A stretch of 47,155 nucleotides of DNA from an uncultured Mycoplasma sp. (GTDB taxonomy: Bacteria > Bacillota_I > Bacilli_A > RF39 > UBA660): positions 1 to 47,155 of the forward strand of contig CAMNSE010000010.1 in NCBI GenBank assembly GCA_946554525.1, written 5' to 3'. Each line of letters begins with the position of its first letter. The stretch's first letter is position 1. Positions 30,205 to 47,155 of this stretch are shown one piece after another. A program made the position numbers and the translations under genes. The notes beneath the pieces were generated by a model. The model saw only the letters and a program-made list of their open reading frames with translations. It was not told the origin of the DNA and did not search any database.

Positions 30205-31551
30205 CTACAATTTTGATTTTATTTCTTTAATCGTTGCTTCTAATTCTTTATTGGTTAGTAATTCTTTTTCCATCTTATCACAAGCAAATATTACAGTTGA
30301 ATGATCTCTTCCTCCAAATTCTAATCCTATTCTTGGGAAAGTCTCATCGGTTTCAATTCGACATAAGTACATAGCAAGTTGTCTTGGATGAGCTACTTTA
30401 TTGCTTCTTTTCTTTCCTTTTAAATCTTCAATAGTTATGTTATAATGATCGGCAACTACTTTTTGAATCTTAGTGATATTGTTGTTAGAATAAATATTTT
30501 TATTAACAAAATCTTTTAAAGCTTCACAAGTAAATTCTAAATCAATGGTATTTGGTACAATCATAGCTGTATAAGCCATTAATCTATTGATAGCCCCTTC
30601 TAAAAAACGAATATCATTTTGACAAGCATTAGCAATATATTCAATACTTTCTTCTTTTATAAGTCCTGCAATGCTTGTATTTTCTATTTTTTTTCTTATA
30701 ATTCGACATCGCAAATCAAAATCTGGTGGATAAATATCTACTGGCAAACCCCACATAAATCTTGATCTAAGTCGTTCCTCTAAAATTTTTAAGTCATCAG
30801 GTGATCTATCACTACTAATTATAATTTGTTTATTTGATTGATGTAAGTAATTAAAAGTATTAAAAAATTCTTGCTGTGTTTTTTCTGCCCCTACTAAATA
30901 TTGAATATCATCAATAATTAAAACATCTACATTCCGATATTTATTTTTAAATTCTGTTGCATATTCAATAGTGTTTTTACTATTATCAGGATTAGCAATA
31001 TTCGTATATTCAGTCATAAATTCATCACATGTACAGTATAGTACTTTTCTATTTGAATTTGCTGTAATATAATTTCCTATTGCATGCATTAAATGAGTTT
31101 TTCCTAGTCCACTTTTTCCATAAATAAATAATGGATTATGAATTCTTCCAGGTGCTTCTGCAACAGCCATAGCCGCAACTTTAGCAAGTCTATTAGTATC
31201 TCCAACTACGAAATTATCAAAATTTAGATTAGGATTTAAATTAGTTTCAAAATTAGTGTTAGTAAGTTGACCGTTATCACCAGTAATTTCAGGTATAACT
31301 CCAGCTTCGTCTTCTAAAATAAAGTTAATATCATAATTTATATTTGTAATATTATACAAAGTTTTTTCAATCAGTGAATAGTAGTTGTCTCCAAGCATCT
31401 TTTTATGAATGTCCATTGGAACTTGAAAAACAACTTTTTCATTATTTAGAGTAATAATTTTTAAATCATTAAACCAAGCATGGAATGAGGCCGGATTAAT
31501 TTCTTTATAAATATTATCTAAAAATTCTTTTAATAATGCTTCCTTCGACAA
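30205..31551 (-). CDS. dnaA: Chromosomal replication initiator DnaA
   Basis: DnaA binds DnaA boxes and opens the origin. About 448 residues: domain I (1-~75, with FHAWFNDLKI), a short linker, the AAA+ domain with NFVVGDTNRLA, Walker A GKSGLGKTHL (about 143-152) and Walker B VLIIDDIQYL, and the DNA-binding domain with the box-recognition signature VAHPRQLAMYLCR and GGRDHSTVIFA. The TTG at 31549-31551 is preferred because GGGGTGAGG lies just upstream. A GTG at 31560 would add three residues. Confidence 0.96.
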   Translation of the reverse strand: MSKEALLKEFLDNIYKEINPASFHAWFNDLKIITLNNEKVVFQVPMDIHKKMLGDNYYSLIEKTLYNITNINYDINFILEDEAGVIPEITGDNGQLTNTNFETNLNPNLNFDNFVVGDTNRLAKVAAMAVAEAPGRIHNPLFIYGKSGLGKTHLMHAIGNYITANSNRKVLYCTCDEFMTEYTNIANPDNSKNTIEYATEFKNKYRNVDVLIIDDIQYLVGAEKTQQEFFNTFNYLHQSNKQIIISSDRSPDDLKILEERLRSRFMWGLPVDIYPPDFDLRCRIIRKKIENTSIAGLIKEESIEYIANACQNDIRFLEGAINRLMAYTAMIVPNTIDLEFTCEALKDFVNKNIYSNNNITKIQKVVADHYNITIEDLKGKKRSNKVAHPRQLAMYLCRIETDETFPRIGLEFGGRDHSTVIFACDKMEKELLTNKELEATIKEIKSKL

Positions 31552-31560
31552 ATACCTCAC

Positions 31561-33575: not shown

Positions 33576-34184
33576 ATGAACGTAGTAAAAGAAGTTGCAA
33601 AAACAAAAGAAGAAGCGCTTAATCGAGTACTTGCAAAATTAAATGCAAATGTTGATGAAGTAGTGTATTCTTATGAGGAAATAAAAGGGGGATTATTTAA
33701 AGGAACTAATTATGAATGTAGTGGTTTCTTAAAATTAGATTTAGTAGATGCTGCAGCGGAGTTTTTAAAAGGCATTATCACAAATATGGGTATTGAAGCT
33801 TCTATTGAAGTAAGTACAAAAGAAAATACAACGACTTTAAAAGTTTATTCATCTAATAATCCTTTAATTATAGGAAAAAATGGTGCAAATTTAGAAGCTC
33901 TAACAACCATTGTTAGACAATATATTAAAAATATTACTTCTAATGGTCCAAGAATTGTTTTAGATGTTGAGGATTATAAAGAAAGACAAATAAAAAAATT
34001 AGAGAGACTTGCTAAAAATCTAGCACGAGACGTATTAAGAACTAAAACTGATGTTGAAATGGAGAACATGAATTCTTATGAAAGAAGAATTGTTCATAAT
34101 ATTTTAACGGATTTTAAAGGTATTACTACAGAAAGTGTAGGGGAAGAACCTAATCGTCATGTAGTAATAAAATATAATAAGTAA
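33576..34184 (+). CDS. khpB: RNA-binding protein KhpB (Jag/EloR)
   Basis: A cytoplasmic RNA-binding protein linked to cell elongation. The 202-residue protein has the Jag-N domain (1-~50), a KH-II domain with IGKNGANLEALTTIVRQY (about 104-121) and an R3H domain with MNSYERRIVHNIL (about 166-178). It begins 3 bases after yidC, completing the rpmH-rnpA-yidC-khpB cluster. The usual followers mnmE, mnmG and rsmG are absent. Confidence 0.95.
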   Translation: MNVVKEVAKTKEEALNRVLAKLNANVDEVVYSYEEIKGGLFKGTNYECSGFLKLDLVDAAAEFLKGIITNMGIEASIEVSTKENTTTLKVYSSNNPLIIGKNGANLEALTTIVRQYIKNITSNGPRIVLDVEDYKERQIKKLERLAKNLARDVLRTKTDVEMENMNSYERRIVHNILTDFKGITTESVGEEPNRHVVIKYNK

Positions 34185-36234: not shown

Positions 36235-36516
36235 ATGGAAGAAAGAGCAACTAAAAAGGTTGTTATTGATCCAGGACATGGAGGGGCTGATCCTGGAACT
36301 AGCGCAAATGGAATTGTTGAAAAAGATTACACATTAATGATTAGTAAGTATATGTCTGATCGTTTAAATGATTTAGGAATAGAAAATGCCTTAACTAGAA
36401 CTGATGATGTGAGCTTAGATTCTACTAATAGACCAAAGAAAGCACAAAGCTTATACGGAAGTGGTAATGATGTAATAATGGTATCTAATCACATAAATGC
36501 CGGAGGGGGCGATGGT
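36235..36516 (+). pseudogene. N-acetylmuramoyl-L-alanine amidase, 5' part, split by the integrative element
   Basis: An Amidase_3-type zinc enzyme that cuts the bond between muramic acid and the stem peptide. The remaining 94 codons hold VVIDPGHGGADPGTS (first His ligand), GIVEKDYTL (Glu ligand) and VSNHINAGGGDG (second His). The frame then enters element DNA and stops at 36540. The catalytic Glu region is lost unless the element leaves. The chromosomal frame resumes at 47114 with AEIIYALRN, exactly the family's continuation. The start is ATG 36235 behind AGGTGA. No signal peptide is seen. Confidence 0.88.
36514..36516 (+). other. attL: left junction of the element
   Basis: Amidase coding sequence ends at GATGGT (36511-36516) and unrelated sequence CATTGTGTAAC follows. 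GGT is shared with the right junction at 47111-47113. A very short shared core is expected for large serine recombinases, which exchange at a 2-bp core (GG or GT here). The exact crossover within these bases is not determined. Confidence 0.75.
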
Positions 36517-36580
36517 CATTGTGTAACAAAGTATGTATAACGATTAAAGCCAAATAAATAATAAAGAATGGAGAAATGTT

Positions 36581-36931
36581 ATGAATATTAGCTACACTAG
36601 AAAAGGTGATTATTTATTACCTAATTTAAATTAAAAGATGAAAAACAATTTAAATATAGGAAAATATGGGTTATTAAGACTAGAATATATTAAAAAACAT
36701 AAGTTAGGATTATATTTTGATTTACTTATGAATGATACTTTAAATGAATATCTTCATGATATAGATACTATTGTTATAGAGAAAGTACAAATGTTAATTA
36801 ATGAACTTGCTGAAAAAGAAAATATAAATGAAGAATTAAAACAAAATAATCAGATGCTTTGGGTAAGTAAAATAAATAATATTAAAAATACTGCAGAAGA
36901 AATAATTCTAAAGGAGTATATCTATGTGTGA
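36581..36931 (+). pseudogene. tnpV: TnpV-family transposon protein with an in-frame stop
   Basis: TnpV is a small protein of unknown role in Tn4451-like elements. The frame opens at ATG 36581 behind GGAG with MNISYTRKGDYLLPNLN, typical of TnpV, then TAA at 36632-36634, then the same frame continues with NIGKYGLLRLEYIKKHKLGL and ends with a typical AEEIILKEYIY. Between the stop and NIGKYG a neighbouring frame reads KLKDEKQF, like the family linker, so two compensating one-base changes may explain the stop. Reinitiation at ATG 36638 would make a 97-residue product. Confidence 0.75.
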
Positions 36932-37223
36932 TATTACAGATGAAGAATTTGAAATAATATATTTACCTGTATGTATTAATTATAACAACTATCTAAAAGA
37001 ATTTGTTATACCAGATGTAGTAGCTTTTTATATTGCAGATAGTTTTTATAAGAGAGCATTATCTAAAGCACCACTTTATAACCATATTAATTCAGCAATA
37101 GATGTATTTAATGTAAGATGTGATATAGATAAACTTATACCATCTATAAAGAAGATATTAAGAATAAAATATAATTTAAAAATAGTAAATAATAATCCAA
37201 TGATATTAAAAAAATTTTATTAA
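36924..37223 (+). CDS. Unknown 99-residue element protein
   Basis: Not recognised. It overlaps the end of tnpV by 8 bases and starts with ATG after AAAGGAGTATATCT, so it is translationally coupled. No signal or membrane segment. The sequence is rich in Ile, Asn and Tyr, with FVIPDVVAFYIADSFYKRAL near the middle. A strong terminator follows. It probably belongs with tnpV to the element's maintenance genes. Confidence 0.65.
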   Translation: MCDITDEEFEIIYLPVCINYNNYLKEFVIPDVVAFYIADSFYKRALSKAPLYNHINSAIDVFNVRCDIDKLIPSIKKILRIKYNLKIVNNNPMILKKFY

Positions 37224-37229
37224 AAAGAG

Positions 37230-37261
37230 AACTCTATCAAATCAAATTGATAGAGTTTTTT
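37230..37261 (+). terminator. Intrinsic terminator after the 99-residue ORF
   Basis: AACTCTATCAA pairs with TTGATAGAGTT around a six-base loop and is followed by T. It separates the tnpV part from the operon that follows. Confidence 0.88.
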
Positions 37262-37280
37262 AAGTGCAACTAATTATTTT

Positions 37281-37358
37281 GGGAGTGAATCTATTGTCTA
37301 GCCAGCACTAAATTTGTACTCCCGCACGAAATTCTTTTATGGGATTACTCCCAATCCC
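37281..37358. repeat. Cluster of GGGAGT/ACTCCC and GGGATT/AATCCC inverted repeats
   Basis: GGGAGT (37281-37286) faces ACTCCC (37318-37323), and ACTCCC recurs at 37347-37352 inside GGGATT..AATCCC (37341-37358). The segment lies between a terminator and the promoter of the nuclease-methyltransferase gene. It may be a controller binding region or an RNA structure. Confidence 0.45.
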
Positions 37359-37412
37359 TATTTAAAATTTTATTAGTATTTTAATGGTAAAGTAAAAAAA
37401 TGTCGAAATATG

Positions 37413-37421
37413 TGGTATAAT
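37413..37421 (+). promoter_or_regulatory. Extended -10 promoter of the defence-like operon
   Basis: TGGTATAAT (37413-37421) is an extended -10 (TGn plus TATAAT) without a good -35, 25 bases before the ATG at 37447, which follows GGAGG. Confidence 0.6.
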
Positions 37422-37446
37422 GTTTATATAAATTGGAGGTACTTTT

Positions 37447-39924
37447 ATGGAAAAAATAATTGACTTTATTTCTGGATTAGAAGTTAATGCAACACCAGAA
37501 GAAATAAATGCTGTTCAACCTTATTCAAAAATTTTAGTAGAAGATTATGGGTATCCAAAAGATATGATTCAAACTCATCCACAGTATAGAGTTAAATCAT
37601 CTCCATCAGATAAAAGGGGTTATCCAATTGATATTGCTGTTTTTGAATACGATAACCATAATAATAAAAGACTAAAAATAGTTGTTGAAAATAAAAAATC
37701 CACGAGAAAAGACGGTCAGGATCAATTAGAAGATTACTTAAAATTTTGTGAAGCTAGAATAGGAATTTGGTATAACGGTATAGAAAGCCTATATATTGAA
37801 AAAATTGAAGAATCCGGTAATATACATTTTAGAGAAATACCAGCTATTCCAAAATATAATCAAAAACGTGAAGAAATTGGATTGTATAAAAGAAAAGACT
37901 TAAAAAGCACTCATAATTTAAAAGATATTTTTTCAGAGTTGAGAGGTTATATTGCTGGAAATAGTGTTGGAGTTAATAGAGATGAGGCAATAGCTAAAGA
38001 GATGATTCATCTAATTTTATGTAAAATATATGATGAAAGGTTTACTAAAATGGATGATATGGTGACATTTAGGGCATCAGAATGTGATAGCGATCAAGAA
38101 ATAAGAGAAAGAATTGATACTTTATTTTTAAGAGTAAAAACAAAATATAAGGACGTACTAGATGAATCAGATTCTATTGATTTTGATGGTCACACTCTTC
38201 GTTATGTAATAGGTAAAATTCAAAATTATTGTCTGATAGATACTGATAGGGATATAATAGCGGATGCTTTTGAAGTCTTTATAGGTGGCTCACTAAAAGG
38301 AGAACAAGGACAATTTTTTACTCCTAAAAATGTTGTTAAAACTTTAGTTGCTGCTGTTAACCCTACTTTAGATGATATAATAATTGATCCTAGTTGTGGA
38401 AGTGGAAGTTTCTTAGTTGAGGCTTTGAAAGAATTATGGTTAGATATTGATGAAATGGGTAATACATATGGCTGGTCAGAAAGTGCAATTGTTGAAGAAA
38501 AGAAAACAGTTGGTATTAAGAATATACGAGGAATAGAAAAAGATAGTTTTCTAACTAAATTAGGAAAGTCATATATGGCAATTTTAGGTGACGGAAAAGG
38601 TGGCATTTTTTGTGAGGACAGTTTGGAAAATCCTGACAATTGGAAAGAATTTACTCAACAAAATGTTAAACTTGGAACTTTTTCTGTTTCATTTAGTAAT
38701 CCGCCATTTGGAAAAGATATAAAAGTAACTGGGAAGCAAAAACTATCTCAATATGAGCTTGCTAAAAAAATTGATTCAAAAGGCAAAGAAAAATTGTTAG
38801 ATGAAGGAAATGTCTCAACTTTATTTTTAGAAAGAAATTTACAACTATTAAAAGATGGTGGTAGAGTAGGTATAATTTTACCTGAAACATATTTTCATGC
38901 CCCTAATCAAAAAAATGTCAGAGAATTTATTTTCAAACATAATATACAATGGATTATAGATTTACCACACAATACATTTAGGCCTCATAACAATGCAAAA
39001 TGTATTGCGATAGTCATTCAAAAAAATATGCCTCAACAAAAAGAAATTAATATGGCAGTTGCAGAGTATATAGGCCACGATCATAATGGTAAACCTCTGT
39101 ATAGGTATGATGATAAAAGAAAAATTTATACAAATAAAATATTAGATGATACTAAAGAAATAATTAGAGAAATTAAGCTTAAAAATTCTGGAGCAATATT
39201 TGATCAAAAATATACATTTCAAGTGGACTCATCTTTAATAAAAAATTCAGGAATACTTGTTCCAAGATATTATTGGAATTCAAAAAAAGTTGAGATTCAA
39301 GAAAAAGCAAAAGAAGAGAATATAGATTTAATATCTTTACAACAATTAATTGATGAAGGTGTCATTGAATATTTTGATGGAAATGGCTCTCCATCATCTG
39401 AATTTAAAGGCACTGGAGATATTCCATATATTAGGGTTAAAGATATTGTTAATTGGCAAATATATAAGGATCCAACAGCATTAATTCCTGAATCAGAGTT
39501 TAATAGATTATATAAGCCTGCAAAACAATTGAAAGAAAAAGATATTTTATATGTCAGAAGAGGAAGTTATAGAATTGGAAGCGTAGCAATGGTTTCTCCT
39601 TATGATTTGAAAGTAATATTAACTAGGGAAATATTGGTTTTAAGAATTAAAGATTATAAAAATAAATATGGGATAACTCCTGAATATTTGATGTATGCAT
39701 TGTCGCATAGACTATCATATGAACAATCAAATAATAAAATATTTATTGATACGACTTTACCAAATATAGCCGATAGATGGAAAGAAATTGAGATTCCTAT
39801 TTATAAAGATAAAGAAAAATATGAAGTAATAAAATCAAAAGTTTCTAAAGTTGTTGAAAACCAATGGAATTCTCTAAAAAATATTTCGATTATGAAAGAA
39901 AAATATGATATTTATAATACATAG
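37447..39924 (+). CDS. Single-chain restriction-modification protein (nuclease, N6-adenine methyltransferase, target recognition)
   Basis: The 825-residue protein fuses three parts. The N-terminus (about 1-140) resembles the HsdR N-terminal nuclease fold with Asp62 in GYPIDIAVF and Glu81-x-Lys83 in VVENKK, a PD-(D/E)xK pattern. The middle (about 150-600) is an HsdM-like methyltransferase with EQGQFFTP, DPSCGSGSF (about 314-322) and NPPFG (about 418-422). The end (about 630-825) is a type I S-like target domain (GTGDIPYIRVKDI, ILYVRRGSYRIG). There is no helicase. This is the layout of type IIG/IIL enzymes, which modify one strand and cut at a distance. It is the first gene of a three-gene operon. 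Confidence 0.85.
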   Translation: MEKIIDFISGLEVNATPEEINAVQPYSKILVEDYGYPKDMIQTHPQYRVKSSPSDKRGYPIDIAVFEYDNHNNKRLKIVVENKKSTRKDGQDQLEDYLKFCEARIGIWYNGIESLYIEKIEESGNIHFREIPAIPKYNQKREEIGLYKRKDLKSTHNLKDIFSELRGYIAGNSVGVNRDEAIAKEMIHLILCKIYDERFTKMDDMVTFRASECDSDQEIRERIDTLFLRVKTKYKDVLDESDSIDFDGHTLRYVIGKIQNYCLIDTDRDIIADAFEVFIGGSLKGEQGQFFTPKNVVKTLVAAVNPTLDDIIIDPSCGSGSFLVEALKELWLDIDEMGNTYGWSESAIVEEKKTVGIKNIRGIEKDSFLTKLGKSYMAILGDGKGGIFCEDSLENPDNWKEFTQQNVKLGTFSVSFSNPPFGKDIKVTGKQKLSQYELAKKIDSKGKEKLLDEGNVSTLFLERNLQLLKDGGRVGIILPETYFHAPNQKNVREFIFKHNIQWIIDLPHNTFRPHNNAKCIAIVIQKNMPQQKEINMAVAEYIGHDHNGKPLYRYDDKRKIYTNKILDDTKEIIREIKLKNSGAIFDQKYTFQVDSSLIKNSGILVPRYYWNSKKVEIQEKAKEENIDLISLQQLIDEGVIEYFDGNGSPSSEFKGTGDIPYIRVKDIVNWQIYKDPTALIPESEFNRLYKPAKQLKEKDILYVRRGSYRIGSVAMVSPYDLKVILTREILVLRIKDYKNKYGITPEYLMYALSHRLSYEQSNNKIFIDTTLPNIADRWKEIEIPIYKDKEKYEVIKSKVSKVVENQWNSLKNISIMKEKYDIYNT

Positions 39925-39934
39925 AATGAGCGCT

Positions 39935-39981
39935 AGTACAGGCTTAAATATATATTTAAGTTTTTGTCTTGTGCTTTTTTG
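39935..39981 (+). terminator. Probable terminator in the nuclease gene - PHP gene gap
   Basis: AGTACAGG and CTTGTGCT flank an all-A/T palindrome (CTTAAATATATATTTAAG, 39943-39960), and six T follow. If used, it only lowers expression of the next two genes, since no other clear promoter is visible in the 75-base gap. Confidence 0.45.
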
Positions 39982-39999
39982 TAGTAGGAGGTATAAGCT

Positions 40000-42384
40000 A
40001 TGTGTAATAAAATAGTAGATAAGTCATTGAAAATAGATTTACATATTCATTCATGTTACTCTAAACATAAAGATGGTAGCAAAGTTTCTAATAATACGTT
40101 ATCAAATATAGATATTTTAATAAAAAAATTAAACGAAAATAATGTAAATATGTGTGCAGTAACGGATCATGATTATTTTGATTATAATTTATATTCAAAA
40201 TTAAAAGAATCAGAGAATACTGGTTCTATTCAAAAAGTATTACCAGGAATTGAAGCTTCTGTTTTATTGAGTGGTGACGATGATTCTAAAGTGATACATA
40301 TAATAACTATATTTGATGATTCAAATAATGAAAAACTTAAAGATATTAATTCATATTTAGTAGATGATAATGGTAATCCTAAATATGATGCAATTGGGAA
40401 AGATGCTTATAAGGAAGAAACGTATTTAGACATTTTAAGAAATATTGGTTTAAGTGTTATTTTGATTGCACATCAAAAAAATTCTCCATTAAGTAATGGT
40501 GATTTAAAAGAAAACGATGTATCAACACTTGGAAAAAGGACATTTGATGAATTAGTGTTTGCTGATTATTTTGACTCATTTGAATTTAGAAATAAGAAGA
40601 ATCAAGTATTTAATAATATATATATGAATCATATGAAACAGTTATCGTTAACAAGTGATGTTAAATTTATAACTTCAAGTGATTGCCATGATTGGAATAT
40701 ATATCCAAAGATTGATAAAAATGACAATATAGATGATTATCCATATACATTCTTAAAATGTTTACCAACATTTAAAGGACTTGTAATGGCAATAACTGAT
40801 TATAGAAGAATAAGCTTAAACAATAGTTTTTTTAGCCAATCTTCAAGATATTTAAAAGAAATAAGGTATACAATAAATGGGTGTGAAAAGACTATTGAAT
40901 TGTCAAAAGGAATTAATGTTATAATTGGAGATAATTCTGTTGGCAAATCACTGTTAGTTCATGCTATAACAGATTGGAAGAAGATTAATTCAACTTTGAA
41001 AGACAAATATCAAAAATATTTAAGTAGTAATAAGATGAACATTAAAACTATAATTGATGAAAGCAATATATTTGGCTTTGATAAGCAGGGCGAAATTCGT
41101 GATAATTTTACTAACGGAAAATTAAAAGCAAAAACATTTTTATCAAAGTATTTTCCTCCAGAACCTAATATTAAACTATTACGTGCTGAATTAGATAATA
41201 GTTATGCAAAATATTTTAATTCAATTGATTCAAAAATAGAATATGAAAAGAAAAAATGTGAATTAAAGTCTTTTATGATAAATATAGAAGACAATATCGA
41301 TAATTTAACGTTTGATAATGTAATAAAGAAATTAGACTTAAATAGATATAAATCCATTATAGATTTATTTGACGGGTTAATTACTAGTTATAACAATCTT
41401 ATTGCATTAGATGAGTTGCTAAAAGATGATAAGGAAAAGTTATTAGTATATAAAAAAGAAATGATGGAATTATCAAAAAAATATAATAAATTGAAAAATA
41501 GAGATGTTTTTGAAAATTCTATTATTGATGTAATAACAAATAAAATTAATCTGCTTGATAACGAATTAACAAATATTAAATCTGATAGTGATAAAAAAAC
41601 TGGTATATATACTAATAATATATCACAACTTAAAAATACAATTGTAGATCTAGTAAAATTAGAAAAAACTTCAATAGAATGCAAACCAGATATTAAATCT
41701 AAAAAAGTTCCTGTTTCAGTAGAAAATGTTGGTAAATATAGATTTATAACCAAAACAAAAGTGGAAAATATTACTAATAGTTATTTTTATAGCATTCTTG
41801 AAAAATGTTTTGTTAGAGGTAAATTAATTGCATATTCTGATATAAATGCTGAATTATTAGAAGAAAAAATAAAGGACTATGATGATAGTGAAGGACCAGT
41901 TGAATTTCTAAAAAAACGTGTTAAAGATTTATTGGATGTTGATTTTAAATGTAAAAATGTAATTAATTTAAAAAGTGATAAGGATGTATATACAGAATTA
42001 TCTAATGGATTTGATTCGAGAATATATTTTGATTTATTATCTAATCAAAAGTCGTTTGATGGCATCTATATAATTGATCAGCCAGAAGATGATGTATCAC
42101 AAAATTCAATTAAGGAATATTTATTAGATAATTTTAAGTTAATGGGGAAAAATAGGCAGTTAATAATTATCACTCATAATCCCCAGTTTATTGTTAATTT
42201 GGATGTTGATAATGTTATTGCTATTCAAAAAAATGAAATTGGGTTGGATATTCATTATGGCGCTTTAGAGTATGAAGATGATCAATATAATATAATTGAT
42301 ATAATTGCAAATAGCATTGATGGCGGAATTGATACGATTAATAAGAGGTGGAAAAGATATGACAAAACAAATAAAAATGATTAA
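40000..42384 (+). CDS. PHP-domain/SMC-like ATPase fusion
   Basis: The 794-residue protein starts with a PHP-type metallo-phosphoesterase domain (about 10-270): DLHIHS with His15 and His17, TDHD (55-58), ILIAHQKN and SSDCHDW metal ligands. An ABC/SMC-like ATPase follows: Walker A GDNSVGKS (310-317), a coiled-coil insert (about 390-540), and Walker B YIIDQPEDD (690-698) with IIITHNPQFIV as the H-loop. This matches proteins often annotated as TrlF-type AAA-like ATPases, recalled from memory. Partner of the upstream RM-like gene in a probable anti-phage operon; a nucleic-acid-directed phosphoesterase is the likely activity. Confidence 0.85.
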   Translation: MCNKIVDKSLKIDLHIHSCYSKHKDGSKVSNNTLSNIDILIKKLNENNVNMCAVTDHDYFDYNLYSKLKESENTGSIQKVLPGIEASVLLSGDDDSKVIHIITIFDDSNNEKLKDINSYLVDDNGNPKYDAIGKDAYKEETYLDILRNIGLSVILIAHQKNSPLSNGDLKENDVSTLGKRTFDELVFADYFDSFEFRNKKNQVFNNIYMNHMKQLSLTSDVKFITSSDCHDWNIYPKIDKNDNIDDYPYTFLKCLPTFKGLVMAITDYRRISLNNSFFSQSSRYLKEIRYTINGCEKTIELSKGINVIIGDNSVGKSLLVHAITDWKKINSTLKDKYQKYLSSNKMNIKTIIDESNIFGFDKQGEIRDNFTNGKLKAKTFLSKYFPPEPNIKLLRAELDNSYAKYFNSIDSKIEYEKKKCELKSFMINIEDNIDNLTFDNVIKKLDLNRYKSIIDLFDGLITSYNNLIALDELLKDDKEKLLVYKKEMMELSKKYNKLKNRDVFENSIIDVITNKINLLDNELTNIKSDSDKKTGIYTNNISQLKNTIVDLVKLEKTSIECKPDIKSKKVPVSVENVGKYRFITKTKVENITNSYFYSILEKCFVRGKLIAYSDINAELLEEKIKDYDDSEGPVEFLKKRVKDLLDVDFKCKNVINLKSDKDVYTELSNGFDSRIYFDLLSNQKSFDGIYIIDQPEDDVSQNSIKEYLLDNFKLMGKNRQLIIITHNPQFIVNLDVDNVIAIQKNEIGLDIHYGALEYEDDQYNIIDIIANSIDGGIDTINKRWKRYDKTNKND

Positions 42385-42673
42385 TAAAGAAAATTTGATA
42401 GTAATTGAAGATTCAGAGAATAACGAATTATTTCAGATAAACTTGGATAATATGATATTTGATTCACAAAAATTTTATGAAAGTTTTTTCAAAGGATTAT
42501 CTGAAAAAGTAGAATATAATCTTTCTAATAATATAGATGAGAAAACATCAAAAGATTATAAAAAAAATTTAAGGATTTACGAAAATATAAATAAATTGTT
42601 TTCAGATATACAAAAAGATGTAAATACTTTATTTGACGAGAAAGATGAAAATGAAATACAAGAAAAAGAATAG
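42359..42673 (+). CDS. Unknown 104-residue protein of the defence-like operon
   Basis: Not recognised. The ATG at 42359 follows GAGGTGG and overlaps the end of the PHP-ATPase gene by 26 bases, so the two are translated together. The frame is open from 42305, but that start has no ribosome-binding site. The protein is acidic and helical with a short sheet at the start (NLIVIEDSENNELFQINLDN) and a coiled-coil-like end. It may be a small regulatory or adaptor subunit. Confidence 0.7.
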   Translation: MTKQIKMINKENLIVIEDSENNELFQINLDNMIFDSQKFYESFFKGLSEKVEYNLSNNIDEKTSKDYKKNLRIYENINKLFSDIQKDVNTLFDEKDENEIQEKE

Positions 42674-42696
42674 TTTTTGTCGAATTATGTCGAACG

Positions 42697-42760
42697 ATTA
42701 CTTATTGATATATAAGTAATAGGTGTTATAATTATTTTAGTCACTAGGGAATGTGACTAA
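42697..42760. repeat. Two adjacent inverted repeats downstream of the operon
   Basis: ATTACTTAT (42697-42705) faces ATAAGTAAT (42712-42720). TTAGTCAC (42737-42744) faces GTGACTAA (42753-42760). Neither is followed by a T-run. They may be binding sites for an element regulator. Confidence 0.5.
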
Positions 42761-42776
42761 TACATATAAACATATA

Positions 42777-42930
42777 GTGTCATTTAATATAGACACAATT
42801 AAAATAGGGAAATAACCTTATAAATTAAAGTTCAAATATAAGAACTGAATACATATTTATTCCAACAAGCAAGATTGGATATTATTCCCTTGTTTTGTTA
42901 TGGACTAATATGTTCAGTTCTTTTTATGTG
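42777..42930 (+). promoter_or_regulatory. Structured leader RNA or attenuator before the HTH gene
   Basis: AAGAACTGAA (about 42838-42848) pairs with TTCAGTTCTT (about 42914-42923), and T follows, giving a terminator-like long hairpin. Inside it CAACAAG (about 42864) can pair with CTTGTT (about 42892). The 5' AGGGAAATAA near 42808 resembles the complement of ATTATTCCCT inside the hairpin, suggesting two alternative folds. No Rfam family is recognised. Confidence 0.5.
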
Positions 42931-42964
42931 TTCCTAAAAAGACTGGTAAAGGAAGGAGGATAAC

Positions 42965-43538
42965 ATGGAACTACTAAACTTGATAATCTTATATTGGAAA
43001 GATAATGAAAAAAGATATAGAACCATTTATAAGTTTAGTATTACCAGAATCAGTATTAGGAGATAATAGATTAACTTACTTTGAAAGATTATTGTTAATT
43101 GAACTAGTCTCACTATGTAAGAAAAATGGATATTGTTGGCCTACTAACAGATAATTTATGAATAAGTTTGAATGTACTAAAACAACAGTATCAAAAAGTA
43201 TAAGTAGTTTATCAAAATATGGATATATAGATATTGAAATAAATAATAGTGAAAAGAATAATTCAAAAAGAATAATTAGATTAACAGAGGTGTTAAAGAA
43301 AAGAATAATAAGTATTCAAGAAAATATTAATACCAGTATTCAAAATAATTTTAACCATGATAATAAATATAATAAAAATAAAAAAGATATATTAGATAAA
43401 ATTTATTACGTTGATGAAAATTGTGTAGAGTATTGGCATGGTATTCCTATTGAACCTAGTGTTGCAACTAAAGAAGAACAAGAAAAAATGGAGAATTTAT
43501 TGAAAGAGTTTAAAGAAAAGGAGAAAGATATATTATGA
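42965..43538 (+). pseudogene. Broken helix-turn-helix (replication-initiator-like) gene
   Basis: Translation from ATG 42965, right after AGGAGGATAAC, gives MELLNLIILYWKDNEK and then a run of six A near 43007-43012. Removing one A leads into DIEPFISLVLPESVLGDNRL and a HTH region (LTYFERLLLIELVSL, NGYCWPTNR). A TAA at 43152-43154 takes the place of a Tyr usual in this HTH (TNRYF), and the frame goes on as FMNKFECTKTTVSKSISSLS to 43538. So the gene has one frameshift and one nonsense codon. The intact 3' part alone (43158-43538) would be a 126-residue product. Confidence 0.65.
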
Positions 43539-43571
43539 ATAGCTCACTCATAAAATTAAATGAGGTGGCTT

Positions 43572-43664
43572 ATGTTTAAGATAATAGAAACTTTCAAAGA
43601 TGATTCTCCTAATTTTACAGATTTGGTAACTAAATTTATAAATAGTGTGATAAATAGTGATTGA
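43572..43664 (+). CDS. 30-residue small protein upstream of the recombinase
   Basis: ATG at 43572 follows GAGGTGGCTT and the frame ends at TGA 43662-43664: it begins MFKIIETFKDDSPNFTDLVT. The good ribosome-binding site supports translation. Small proteins upstream of large serine recombinases sometimes act as directionality factors; that role is speculative here. Confidence 0.5.
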   Translation: MFKIIETFKDDSPNFTDLVTKFINSVINSD

Positions 43665-43689
43665 CAGAATGCTCATAATTAAATTTATG

Positions 43690-43698
43690 TGTTATAAT
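43690..43698 (+). promoter_or_regulatory. Extended -10 promoter of the recombinase
   Basis: TGTTATAAT (43690-43698) precedes the TTG start at 43743 by about 45 bases. A TTGACA at 43661 is too far upstream (26 bases) to be its -35. Confidence 0.5.
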
Positions 43699-43742
43699 TT
43701 AATTGGCTTTAGTTGTTATACAAAAGAGAAAGGAGAGTAAAC

Positions 43743-45326
43743 TTGTATAACACTTTAAGAGAGATGCCAGAATACTATAAAGCAGGAATTTATATAAGAT
43801 TATCTGAAGCTGATGAGGGCAAATCTTACGAGTCTGAAAGTGAGAGTGTCCTTAATCAAAGAAATATACTAAAGAATTTTGTAAAAGAAAAAGGTTTTAT
43901 TTTTGTAGATGAATACGTAGATGATGGCTATTCAGGTACTACTTTTGATAGACCGGGGTTTCAAAGACTTATAGAAGATATTAAAGCCAAAAAAATTAAT
44001 CTTGTTGTAGTAAAAGATTTATCAAGATTAGGTAGAGATCATATTTTAACGGGTTATTATGTTGAAACTTTCTTTCCTGAAAATGGAATAAGATTTATTT
44101 CTATGTTAGAAGGTTATGATAACGCTATTAATCAAGCAAGTAATGATTCAGCAACATGGTTATTTGCTTGTAATGATTATTATAGTAAACAAAACTCAAT
44201 TAAAATACGCAATGTTCTAAATGATAAACGAAGAAATGGTAAATTTATAGGTAGCATGCCTAGCTTCGGATATTTAAGAGATCCAGAAGATAAAGGACAC
44301 TTAATACCAGATCCAGAATATGCGCCTATTGTTAAAAAGATATTTGACATGGCTTATAATGGAGTAGGACTAACTGATATAACTACTTATTTAAATGATA
44401 ATAATATAAAAACACCAAGTAGTTTAAAGAGAAAAAATCCTAACTCAAATGCCAAATATAATCCTATGTGGACAATTTCTTCTGTTAAAAAGATATTAAA
44501 AAATCAAATGTATGTGGGTGATATGGTTCAAAGTACACAGACTAAAGTATCTTATAAATCCAAAAAGAAAAAAGCATTACCAAAAAGTAATTGGGATATA
44601 GTTAAAAATACCCATGAACCATTAATAGATAGATTTATATTTGAAAGTGTGCAAAACAATGTTAAAAGAACTATTAAATCTAATGTTACTAATAGAGAAA
44701 AAAGACTATTTGAAAATTTATTATATTGTAAAGAGTGTGGTAACACTTTAACAGTATCTTATAGAAAAAACCATGATTATTGGACTATTAATTGTAATAG
44801 ATATTCTAGAGATCCTAGAAGAAGAATGTGTGAACCTCATTTCAGTCCGTATGATAAATTAGAAGAATCATTACTTGAAGTTATTAGAAATACTTGTAAA
44901 AAGTATTTGAAAACTTTAGATGTATCTGAAATATCAAAAAAAGTTAATAATACAAACAATAAAGATGATGTTAATAATCAAATTAGTGATTTAAGAAAAC
45001 AAGAAAAAGATTTTATTAGTAAATTAGATATGTTATATCAAGATAAATTTAATGGAATAGTATCTGAAGAAATGTATTTAAGAATTTCTAGAGAAACTGA
45101 AAATTCTCTTGTTAGAACAAGAGAAAAAATTGAAAGCTTACAAAATATTAAAGAAAACAATAAAGTTAATAAATCAGAATTAAAAGAATATGAAAATAAA
45201 ATAAGAGAATTAATCGATATTGAGAATCCCTCAAGAGAACTTTTACAGGCTTTAATAGACAAAGTTATTATAGATAAAGATAGAAATGTAGAAATTGTCT
45301 ATAAATTTAGTATATTAAATAATTAG
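43743..45326 (+). CDS. Large serine recombinase (integrase of the element)
   Basis: A TnpX/TndX-type site-specific recombinase of 527 residues. The N-terminal resolvase domain has the nucleophile Ser21 in YIRLSEADEG, YVDDGYSGTTFDRPGFQRL and VVKDLSRLGRDH. The recombinase domain (about 165-300) follows, then a zinc ribbon with CKECGN and C..C ligands (about 330-370), and a C-terminal coiled coil (about 400-500). The TTG at 43743 follows AAAGGAGAGTAAAC; a TTG at 43713 lies upstream without such a site. It faces the right end, where two cargo genes separate it from attR. Confidence 0.95.
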   Translation: MYNTLREMPEYYKAGIYIRLSEADEGKSYESESESVLNQRNILKNFVKEKGFIFVDEYVDDGYSGTTFDRPGFQRLIEDIKAKKINLVVVKDLSRLGRDHILTGYYVETFFPENGIRFISMLEGYDNAINQASNDSATWLFACNDYYSKQNSIKIRNVLNDKRRNGKFIGSMPSFGYLRDPEDKGHLIPDPEYAPIVKKIFDMAYNGVGLTDITTYLNDNNIKTPSSLKRKNPNSNAKYNPMWTISSVKKILKNQMYVGDMVQSTQTKVSYKSKKKKALPKSNWDIVKNTHEPLIDRFIFESVQNNVKRTIKSNVTNREKRLFENLLYCKECGNTLTVSYRKNHDYWTINCNRYSRDPRRRMCEPHFSPYDKLEESLLEVIRNTCKKYLKTLDVSEISKKVNNTNNKDDVNNQISDLRKQEKDFISKLDMLYQDKFNGIVSEEMYLRISRETENSLVRTREKIESLQNIKENNKVNKSELKEYENKIRELIDIENPSRELLQALIDKVIIDKDRNVEIVYKFSILNN

Positions 45327-45327
45327 A

Positions 45328-45352
45328 ACTTCTACCCAAGTTTGGGAGAAGT
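45328..45352 (+). repeat. Hairpin after the recombinase gene
   Basis: ACTTCT and CCCAA pair with TTGGG and AGAAGT around a short loop (45328-45352), two bases after the stop. It lacks a T-run, so it is either an atypical terminator or an RNA-stabilising hairpin. Confidence 0.5.
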
Positions 45353-45400
45353 GTTACATAAAAAGATAAACTACTTATATGATTACATTTGAGGTGAAAA

Positions 45401-46015
45401 ATGAGAGCGGAAACAAGGACAATAGTAAATAGTTATTATAATGATGTTGATAAGAAAATTTTTGAAAGACTTGCCGACATAATCAAAAAAGATTATCAGA
45501 ATAAAGAAACGCAAAGAGAAATTTGGGAGTATGATCAAAAGTTAGGAGGATTAGGGGGTTATGCTACACCTTTAGATCCAACTGTAAACCCATTTAACTC
45601 TTGGGGAGACTATAGAAATGTATTTAGAAGTCTTCAATATGCTAGAAGTGATATGTTTTATTGTACAAGACCAAGACATATTATAATTGATACTGCCTTA
45701 CATATTGAAACGTTAGTAAAACTTGTAGCTTCTAATAATAAAATTATGAAATTTATTTATAATCATAGAGAATTAGGAAAAAATATATCTCAATTATACA
45801 AAGAAAGTATAATTGATGATGGGTTGTATGAAAGATTAGATTATTTGAGACGAATATTAAATTATGCAAAGCATGATACTGATCCTAATAGAGATAATAC
45901 TTTTGACTATGAAGATGCAATAATCTTTTATTTTGAATGTAGATATGTTGGTAATGGGCTGTTAAAATTATTAAAACATGATACGTTTGGAAAAACTTAT
46001 GAGATTAAGGAATAA
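45401..46015 (+). CDS. Unknown 204-residue protein, HEPN-like
   Basis: I do not recognise a named family. It is helical and soluble. Near the C-terminus it has RRILNYAKHD (Arg151-x6-His158), which fits the R-x4-6-H signature of HEPN ribonucleases, followed by a last helix. A central patch of aromatic residues (WGDYRNVFRSLQYARSD, about 68-84) is notable. ATG follows GAGGTGAAAA. It forms a pair with the DUF4238-like gene (23 bases apart) next to the right end of the element, a usual place for cargo. HEPN assignment is tentative. Confidence 0.7.
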   Translation: MRAETRTIVNSYYNDVDKKIFERLADIIKKDYQNKETQREIWEYDQKLGGLGGYATPLDPTVNPFNSWGDYRNVFRSLQYARSDMFYCTRPRHIIIDTALHIETLVKLVASNNKIMKFIYNHRELGKNISQLYKESIIDDGLYERLDYLRRILNYAKHDTDPNRDNTFDYEDAIIFYFECRYVGNGLLKLLKHDTFGKTYEIKE

Positions 46016-46038
46016 CTTTATGATTTGGAGGAACTATT

Positions 46039-47067
46039 TTGAGCAAAAATTTAAGTAGAAATAATCATTATTTATCACAGATGTATCTTGAAGCATGGAA
46101 AAATAAAAACAATAAAGTTGAAGTATATGAATTATTAGTTCCACACATTAAGGTTCCATTGTGGCAGTCGAAATCAATAAAAAGCGTTGGAAGTTTAGAT
46201 AGTATCTTTGTCCGTATAAAAAATGGTATTGAAATTGATGATATTGAAAGATGGTTTAATGTAAAATATGAAATACCAGTTAAAGAAGCTTTAGAACATG
46301 CTATAAATGATGAAAGAATGGCATCTGATGAATGGCATTATTTAATTGATTTTCTTGCATGTCATATAGTTCGTTCTCCTGCTTATATAGTTAAAATATT
46401 GGATTTAGCTAAAAAAAGTTGTGTTCCAATTTTTCAAGAAAAATGTGAAGAAATTTCTAACATTAAGGAACAAGAAATTTTAAAGACAATTAATAAATAT
46501 AAAGAAAATGAGAATAATGAGCTTTTTCCACTTAAAATAACGGATACTGGAGATATAGATGAAGATAAAGCTATCTTAAAAGTTGAAACGATATTAGGCA
46601 AACAATTTTATTTGTGGATTATGAAACATATGTTGGAAAATACAGTAAAAATATTACATACACACAAATGGGGGATCATTACTGTAGATGAAAAGGTAAC
46701 TTTACCAACAAGTGATGATCCAGTTATTTGTCTTAATTATAATAATGAAAATGATTATGATTTTGGTGGAGGCTGGGGAAGAAAAAATTGCAATATTTTA
46801 TTTCCAATATCACCTAATAAAATTTTATATACTCAGGTTGGAGTAAAGGTTAAACCTAGATACCAGATTGATTTAAAAATGAGTTTAATTTTGAAAAAAT
46901 TAATAATTGAACATTCATATAGAAAAATAATTTCAAATTTTAAAGATCCTGAAATAGAAAAAATTAAACCTAGATATGTTAATTTAGAGGAATTTAAAAG
47001 AGAAAAGGAAATGTGGGAGAATTTTCAAAAAGATTATTTAGAAAAAGAATCAGAATATATAAAATAA
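46039..47067 (+). CDS. DUF4238-family protein
   Basis: The 342-residue protein has the DUF4238 pattern: NNHYLSQMYLEAWKNKNNKV at residues 7-26 (as HHYxPxFYL in the family), a helical middle with HYLIDFLACHIVRSPAYI, then TLPTSDDPVICLNY (about 226-239) and ILFPISPNKILYT (about 260-272). The family's activity is unknown; members are often found in mobile elements and defence-rich areas. The TTG at 46039 follows GGAGG. It ends 44 bases before the element's right junction. Confidence 0.8.
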   Translation: MSKNLSRNNHYLSQMYLEAWKNKNNKVEVYELLVPHIKVPLWQSKSIKSVGSLDSIFVRIKNGIEIDDIERWFNVKYEIPVKEALEHAINDERMASDEWHYLIDFLACHIVRSPAYIVKILDLAKKSCVPIFQEKCEEISNIKEQEILKTINKYKENENNELFPLKITDTGDIDEDKAILKVETILGKQFYLWIMKHMLENTVKILHTHKWGIITVDEKVTLPTSDDPVICLNYNNENDYDFGGGWGRKNCNILFPISPNKILYTQVGVKVKPRYQIDLKMSLILKKLIIEHSYRKIISNFKDPEIEKIKPRYVNLEEFKREKEMWENFQKDYLEKESEYIK

Positions 47068-47110
47068 AAAATAGCAAAATGACACACATTGACTATCGCC
47101 AGGAGGAGAC

Positions 47111-47113
47111 GGT
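47111..47113 (+). other. attR: right junction of the element
   Basis: GGT here matches the GGT at 36514-36516. The bases before it (CCAGGAGGAGAC) resemble the amidase GGAGGGGGCGAT, which suggests that attP partly mimics the target. The bases after it continue the amidase frame. Confidence 0.75.
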
Positions 47114-47155
47114 GCTGAAATAATTTACGCGCTTCGCAATAGCGATAAATTATCT
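47114..47155 (+). pseudogene. N-acetylmuramoyl-L-alanine amidase, 3' part (cut by the window edge)
   Basis: The 14 codons read AEIIYALRNSDKLS with no start nearby, continuing the amidase whose 5' part ends at 36516. The family has GGGDGAE(V/I)IYALRN here, so joining the flanks gives a perfect match. The catalytic Glu lies further downstream. Confidence 0.88.

What the first reader, a model, noticed from the sequence alone, without database searches (positions are those of the whole stretch)
37447..42673. Three-gene putative defence operon: single-chain nuclease-methyltransferase-specificity protein, PHP/SMC-like ATPase and small partner
Gene 1 combines a PD-(D/E)xK nuclease, an N6-adenine methyltransferase and one target-recognition domain without a helicase. 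Gene 2 joins a PHP metallo-phosphoesterase to an SMC-like ATPase. Gene 3 (104 residues, unknown) overlaps gene 2 by 26 bases. I know each type of part, but not this combination as a named system. The ATPase could add a second line of attack if the restriction step fails.
Basis: partly seen in the sequence, partly recalled or inferred. Interest (0 to 1): 0.82.

Follow-up and report, generated by a model that had tools for sequence, protein, structure and literature searches.

The report
PHP nuclease-ATPase with obligate small partner
Two overlapping genes that always travel together, a large predicted DNA- or RNA-cutting ATP-driven protein and a small partner, look like a previously unnamed bacterial anti-virus module sitting next to an unrelated restriction enzyme on a mobile element; in relatives the partner carries parts borrowed from the DNA-damage response, hinting at how the system senses trouble.

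Summary
The three genes and their domains are real, but they are not one three-gene system. Gene 1 (37447-39924) is a single-chain restriction-modification-specificity enzyme whose full-length relatives stand alone on plasmids. Genes 2 and 3 form the true unit. Gene 2 (40000-42384) has a PHP metal site invariant in 70 homologues, fused to a Rad50/SMC/AriA-like ATPase. It falls below the curated cut-offs for TrlF, Ppl and Spaf_1101. A gene-3 homologue overlaps or abuts the 3' end of gene 2 in 77 of 77 loci across Bacillota, Actinomycetota and beyond; gene 1 directly precedes gene 2 only in this window. Gene 3 is under purifying selection (dN/dS 0.05-0.24) and matches no known family or fold. 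In one clade gene 3 is fused to a LexA/UmuD-type S24 autoprotease with intact Ala-Gly, Ser and Lys. In two other clades it ends in an SSB-like tip (DEDIPF, ELPF) resembling the host's own SSB. Best reading: a PHP-nuclease ATPase defence module whose small partner couples it to replication or DNA-damage state. The module is cargo of a serine-recombinase element inserted in an amidase gene near oriC; sister species carry other cargo there. Defence function and mechanism are untested.

The parts
37447..39924 (+). Gene 1: single-chain restriction-modification-specificity enzyme (HSDR_N_2 nuclease, N6-adenine MTase, one HsdS-like TRD); separate from the gene 2-3 module
   Evidence: Pfam/NCBIfam/PADLOC; PDB relative RM.BsaXI; stand-alone plasmid homologues
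37516..37851 (+). Gene 1 HSDR_N_2 nuclease domain, D62 / E81-N-K83
38245..39096 (+). Gene 1 N6-adenine methyltransferase domain (DPSCGSG at 314, NPPFG at 418)
39304..39816 (+). Gene 1 HsdS-like target-recognition region (approximate bounds)
   Evidence: NCBIfam HsdS model matches residues 681-777 weakly; relatives align to ~788
39928..39976 (+). Terminator-like hairpin followed by T6 between gene 1 and gene 2
   Evidence: fold, z -2.9
40000..42384 (+). Gene 2: PHP metallo-phosphoesterase fused to an SMC/Rad50/AriA-like ABC ATPase
   Evidence: 70-member alignment A3, AF2 model, fold matches
40021..40788 (+). Gene 2 PHP domain (residues 8-263); D13/H15/H17 in all 68 homologues that reach it, D56/H57, E85, D228/H230 invariant
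40927..40950 (+). Gene 2 Walker A GDNSVGKS (K316 invariant in 70/70)
41173..41670 (+). Gene 2 helical/coiled-coil insertion of the ATPase head (residues 392-557)
   Evidence: AF2 secondary structure
42070..42093 (+). Gene 2 Walker B IIDQPEDD; Gln694 replaces the usual catalytic Glu in 70/70
42359..42673 (+). Gene 3: 104-aa obligate partner, beta-beta-beta-alpha-beta-alpha fold; overlaps gene 2 by 26 bases, ribosome-binding site lies in the KRW codons of gene 2
   Evidence: 77/77 co-occurrence, dN/dS, AF2 pLDDT 86.5, no PDB match
36517..47101 (.). Mobile element inserted in a LysM-amidase gene; carries TnpV, gene 1, genes 2-3, serine recombinase (43713-45326), DUF4145 and DUF4238 genes
   Evidence: amidase halves at 36253-36516 and 47102-47155; same site in sister species

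Best explanation
Genes 2 and 3 are a stand-alone two-gene defence module carried by a mobile element; gene 1 is an independent restriction-modification enzyme on the same element. Gene 2 is the effector: a PHP metal-dependent nuclease/phosphoesterase fused to a Rad50/SMC-like ABC ATPase that probably works as an ATP-binding clamp or switch. This works like E. coli Ppl, a PHP single-strand DNA 3'-5' exonuclease held off by NTPs. Gene 3 is made with gene 2 by translational coupling, probably binds it, and holds or targets it according to the state of replication or DNA repair. Shown by sequence: intact PHP site, intact Walker A, invariant Walker-B Gln, obligate gene 2-3 pairing, purifying selection on gene 3, S24-autoprotease and SSB-like-tail variants of gene 3. 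Inferred: nuclease activity, physical gene 2-gene 3 binding, the sensing role, and defence against phage.
For: 77/77 pairing, including 12 loci not used to build the gene-3 profile. PHP and ATPase fold and conserved residues. Foldseek hits include AriA of the PARIS defence system. Neighbours are rich in restriction genes (10 ResIII, 8 Eco57I, 6 HSDR_N, 5 N6_Mtase, 4 C5-MTase among 104 upstream ORFs) versus none of these at 2 or more members among 104 ORFs from elsewhere in some of the same genomes. Patchy, horizontal distribution: absent from the 35 other genomes of the genus, 13 of 392 in the phylum. Mobile-element cargo. S24 fusion: Pfam E 4e-24 to 8e-18 in the four tested, Ala-Gly/Ser/Lys kept in 8/8, one clade with full support. 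SSB-like tails: 6 gene-3 homologues, against 2 of roughly 980 other ORFs ending in PF, matching host SSB endings. Ppl mechanism from PMC12904381.
Against: No phage, toxicity or enzymatic data. The window's own gene 3 has neither the S24 domain nor the SSB-like tail, so the sensing idea is extrapolated from relatives. The SSB-tail variant covers only two sub-clades. PHP domains can also be phosphatases or polymerase proof-reading domains. Some family members lost H158 (57/70 keep it). The neighbourhood control is a modest sample and its table hides single-member families.
Confidence: 0.55

Rival explanations
1. One reading: one three-gene system in which the PHP-ATPase is a back-up that fires when the gene 1 restriction step fails, like PrrC or RloC beside type I enzymes.
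For: Same strand, 75-bp gap between genes 1 and 2; restriction genes are common near gene 2 elsewhere, so a loose functional link to restriction in general is possible.
Against: Gene 1 directly precedes gene 2 only here; gene 1 homologues stand alone; terminator-like hairpin between the genes; the neighbouring restriction genes are of many unrelated types.
Confidence: 0.08
2. A selfish stabilisation or toxin-antitoxin pair of mobile elements: gene 2 is a toxin, gene 3 its antitoxin, and phage defence is secondary or absent.
For: Mobile-element location, obligate overlapping small partner, patchy distribution.
Against: Strong association with restriction genes and relation to the anti-phage protein Ppl favour defence; gene 3 lies downstream of the putative toxin; no toxicity data.
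Confidence: 0.2
3. A DNA-repair or replication-quality module (RecN/Rad50-like) without an immune role; S24 and SSB-tail links reflect a repair function.
For: Rad50/RecN/SMC head similarity; S24 and SSB-like tails in relatives.
Against: Rare and patchy, absent from nearly all close relatives, cargo of a mobile element, clustered with restriction genes.
Confidence: 0.12

Closest known systems
Ppl (E. coli single-gene anti-phage PHP-ATPase; NCBIfam NF042955)
   Same: PHP domain joined to an SMC-like NTPase; C-terminal ~100 residues align; PHP ssDNA exonuclease gated by nucleotides (PMC12904381)
   Different: Only 37 bits against a 1000-bit cut-off; Ppl is described as single-gene, whereas this family has an obligate gene 3
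TrlF family AAA-like ATPase (NCBIfam NF045780; Photorhabdus trl locus, PMC7554251)
   Same: PHP plus ATPase, the same DQPEDD Walker B and a similar GG-rich C-terminus; best curated match, 129 bits
   Different: Far below the 350-bit cut-off; the two TrlF proteins read have Asn-Tyr where this family has invariant Asp56-His57; four TrlF loci checked have no gene 3; TrlF branches outside the family
Spaf_1101 family AAA-like ATPase (NF045781)
   Same: Aligns over most of the length (35-84 bits in 11 members)
   Different: Far below the 475-bit cut-off
PARIS AriA-AriB
   Same: AriA is among the best fold matches to the ATPase head
   Different: PARIS keeps its Toprim nuclease AriB on a separate protein; here the PHP domain is fused to the ATPase, and the partner is a small protein without a recognised nuclease domain
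PDC-M49 (PADLOC candidate)
   Same: Candidate with partial similarity in PHP and ATPase parts (25-59 bits)
   Different: Partial matches only; gene 3 homologues have no PADLOC hit beyond chance
Type IIG/IIB enzymes such as RM.BsaXI (for gene 1)
   Same: Nuclease-methyltransferase architecture, best solved relative, E 7e-27
   Different: BsaXI uses a separate S subunit (own knowledge); gene 1 has one TRD fused in the same chain
MADS MAD2 methyltransferase (for gene 1)
   Same: Nearly the whole MAD2 model aligns (310 bits)
   Different: Below the 720-bit cut-off; no other MADS genes seen beside it in the scanned neighbours; extra TRD at the C-terminus

Membership tests
TrlF family (NF045780) | Score above the curated 350-bit cut-off | tested here: not met
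   129 bits for gene 2; 125-200 bits for ten other members
Ppl (NF042955) | Score above the curated 1000-bit cut-off | tested here: not met
   37 bits; up to 61 in other members
Ppl (NF042955) | Single-gene system | tested here: not met
   Gene 3 accompanies gene 2 in 77/77 loci; that gene 3 is needed for function was not tested
Ppl-like PHP nuclease-ATPase (mechanism) | Intact PHP metal site and Walker A on one chain | tested here: met
   D13/H15/H17 in 68/68 that reach it, D56/H57/E85/D228/H230/K316 in 70/70
Ppl-like PHP nuclease-ATPase (mechanism) | 3'-5' ssDNA exonuclease activity inhibited by NTPs | not testable with these tools
   Needs purified protein
Spaf_1101 family (NF045781) | Score above the curated 475-bit cut-off | tested here: not met
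   36 bits for gene 2; up to 84 in other members
MADS (gene 1 as MAD2) | MAD2 score above the curated 720-bit cut-off and the other mad genes nearby | tested here: not met
   310 bits; no other mad gene among the ten window proteins scanned beyond weak generic ATPase/MTase matches
Type IIG-like R-M-S enzyme (gene 1) | Nuclease, methyltransferase and TRD in one chain, no helicase | tested here: met
   the TRD part rests on a weak HsdS match
Type IIG-like R-M-S enzyme (gene 1) | Methylates and cuts a specific motif | not testable with these tools
   Needs long-read methylation data or enzyme assay
LexA/UmuD-type S24 autoprotease (relatives' gene 3) | Ala-Gly cleavage site and Ser/Lys dyad at LexA-like spacing | tested here: met
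   8/8 fused proteins keep AG, S and K, about 32-33 and 36 residues apart; cleavage itself not tested; window gene 3 lacks the domain

The most novel reading that the evidence does not exclude
A new class of PHP-nuclease ATPase immune module gated by replication or DNA-damage state through an exchangeable small partner: in some lineages the partner is a LexA/UmuD-type self-cleaving protein that would respond to RecA filaments, in others it copies the tip of the host single-strand DNA-binding protein to reach, or compete at, the replication and repair machinery.
Probability: 0.33. Interest if true: 0.82.

Novelty: new variant of a known kind. Interest (0 to 1): 0.66.

Why it matters
PHP-ATPase proteins such as Ppl, and perhaps TrlF, are an emerging effector type, and what tells them a phage is present is only starting to be worked out. 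An obligate partner that comes in S24-autoprotease and SSB-tail versions offers natural experiments on that question: mutate the Ser/Lys or the last residues and ask whether the system still fires. It also corrects the record for this locus: the restriction enzyme is a neighbour, not part of the module.

Tried and rejected
Three-gene operon: rejected on synteny. MADS membership of gene 1: below cut-off. TrlF, Ppl and Spaf_1101 membership of gene 2: below cut-offs. Phage collection (relative L041) and plasmid collection (relatives L088, L100): no match; the window gene 2 matched plasmid TrlF genes only over about 20%. Viral contigs: nothing with the single protein, one locus with the alignment, nothing for gene 1. 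Gene 3 against PDB folds: nothing convincing (Foldseek best E 0.15, VIA Z at most 4.3), so no function is claimed from its fold. Literature: 'PHP-SMC' and 'PDC-M49' returned no papers, and three comparative-genomics papers do not mention a PHP domain; the library is open access only. Promoter scan: no more sites than in shuffled sequence, so not used.

Full report
What is there. The three reading frames are at the stated coordinates. Gene 1 is an HSDR_N_2 nuclease domain, an N6-adenine methyltransferase and an HsdS-like C-terminus in one chain with no helicase; catalytic-looking residues D62, E81 and K83 and the motifs DPSCGSG and NPPFG are present. Its best solved relative is the type IIB enzyme RM.BsaXI. 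Gene 2 joins a PHP domain to an SMC/Rad50-like ATPase: Pfam is weak, but an AlphaFold2 model from 70 homologues (pLDDT 87.8) matches PHP enzymes over residues 8-263 (tm0559 Z 13.1, RNase AM 12.6, DNA polymerase III alpha PHP 12.8) and SMC, UvrA and other ABC heads over 283-790; Foldseek also lists AriA of PARIS, RecN and Rad50. Gene 3 is a 104-residue protein without a family match, predicted beta-beta-beta-alpha-beta-alpha (pLDDT 86.5), without a convincing PDB match.

The true unit. A scan of 84,980 bacterial and archaeal genomes plus the phylum search gave 81 other non-redundant loci with gene 2 homologues (22-45% identical to the window where full length), in Bacillota, Actinomycetota, mollicutes, and single records labelled Elusimicrobiales and Alphaproteobacteria. 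In 77 of 77 loci (window included) where the 3' end of gene 2 is present, a gene-3 homologue overlaps or closely follows it. Twelve of these were not in the gene-3 profile (L024, L042, L050, L058, L068, L076, L084, L089, L091, L094, L098, L101); L024 is weak (12 bits). Gene 3 is under purifying selection (dN/dS 0.05-0.24 in eleven pairs; four pairs saturated). Gene 1 directly precedes gene 2 only in the window; one locus (L041) has a related methyltransferase about 4 kb upstream. Gene 1 homologues on Aerococcus and Ligilactobacillus plasmids (95% of the query, 42-44% identity) have no annotated gene 2 or 3 next to them. A hairpin followed by T6 separates gene 1 from gene 2.

What gene 2 conserves. 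The PHP residues D13, H15 and H17 (all 68 sequences that reach them) and D56, H57, E85, D228 and H230 (70/70), and Walker A K316 (70/70), are invariant; H158 is kept in 57/70. The Walker B is IIDQPEDD with Gln in place of the usual catalytic Glu in 70/70, shared with TrlF. By inference, such an ATPase may hydrolyse slowly and act as an ATP-bound clamp or sensor. Two TrlF proteins read here have Asn-Tyr in place of the Asp56-His57 pair, so the PHP site here looks more complete than theirs. The family is below the curated cut-offs for TrlF, Ppl and Spaf_1101 in all 11 members tested, and four TrlF loci lack gene 3. A split version (PHP and ATPase as separate genes, then a 104-residue gene) may exist in L171.

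Variants of gene 3. In one clade (seven loci in the tree, full support) plus L084, gene 3 is fused in frame to a Peptidase_S24 domain (Pfam E 4e-24 to 8e-18 in four tested) with the Ala-Gly cleavage site, Ser and Lys kept in 8/8; the spacing (about 32-33 and 36 residues) is close to that of LexA and UmuD (established knowledge). In two other sub-clades gene 3 ends like the C-terminal tip of SSB: DEDIPF (L077), EEDIPF (L082), DDAIPF (L078), DEELPF (L088), SECPF (L087, L100). The hosts' own SSBs end YDEDIPF (L077, L082), FDQDIPF (L078), DDGELPF (L088), NNDIPF (L087) and DDEVPF (L100). Among about 1,047 ORFs in these loci only eight end in PF and six are gene 3 homologues; shared ancestry means these are about two independent cases, not six. 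The window's gene 3 has neither feature.

Context. The window lies at oriC: the sequence at 30205-31560 (minus) reads as DnaA and 33576-34184 as Jag (my reading of the proteins). The module lies in an element of about 10.6 kb (36.52-47.10 kb) that splits a LysM-amidase gene: its first 94 codons end at 36516 and its continuation starts at 47102. Sister species carry a related element at the same amidase: G002 with a 74%-identical serine recombinase, and G005 with TnpV 85% and the next ORF 94% identical. The G005 cargo appears to be a restriction enzyme and specificity subunit (my reading of the proteins). The element also carries a DUF4238 gene that PADLOC links to a defence system (E 1e-8). 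Across other genomes, genes just upstream of gene 2 are rich in restriction genes compared with a control set (versus 87, 88).

Mechanism, with status. Shown by sequence: intact PHP and ATPase sites, obligate pairing, overlap, selection on gene 3, S24 and SSB-tail variants, mobile and restriction-rich context. Established by others: Ppl, a PHP-NTPase, is an ssDNA 3'-5' exonuclease held off by NTPs and triggered by nucleotide depletion plus 3'-OH ends (PMC12904381). Inferred: gene 2 is a nuclease of similar kind, and gene 3 binds it and couples it to replication stress or DNA damage, through RecA-triggered self-cleavage in the S24 clade and through SSB partners or competition with SSB in the tail clades. 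What gene 3 senses in the window's own lineage is unknown. I hold the two-gene defence-module reading at 0.55 and the damage-gated reading at 0.33.

Noticed in passing
36517-47101; also L159 and L161: Serine-recombinase element inserted in a LysM-amidase gene next to oriC, with different cargo at the same site in sister species (G005 appears to carry a restriction enzyme plus specificity subunit): a cargo-swapping hotspot.
   Followed up: partly
46039-47067 and 45401-46015: DUF4238 gene matching PADLOC DUF4238-Pers (E 1e-8) and a DUF4145/LeoC-like gene on the same element: more probable defence cargo.
   Followed up: no
L068, minus strand, near 5.7-6.6 kb of the locus: A 272-aa protein near a gene 2 locus (by my reading resembling abortive-infection C-terminal proteins) also ends in an SSB-like tip (PAYDDDIPF), so SSB-tail borrowing may be wider among defence genes of Coriobacteria.
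   Followed up: no
L171:1492-4211 (G330): Apparent split form: PHP gene (230 aa), ATPase gene (561 aa), then a 104-aa gene, read with table 4.
   Followed up: no
42338-42359: The conserved KRW codons at the end of gene 2 also supply the ribosome-binding site of gene 3 (AAGAGGTGG).
   Followed up: no
L041:3021-5006: An N6 methyltransferase related to gene 1 lies about 4 kb upstream of an S24-type gene 2-3 pair, with three other ORFs between.
   Followed up: no
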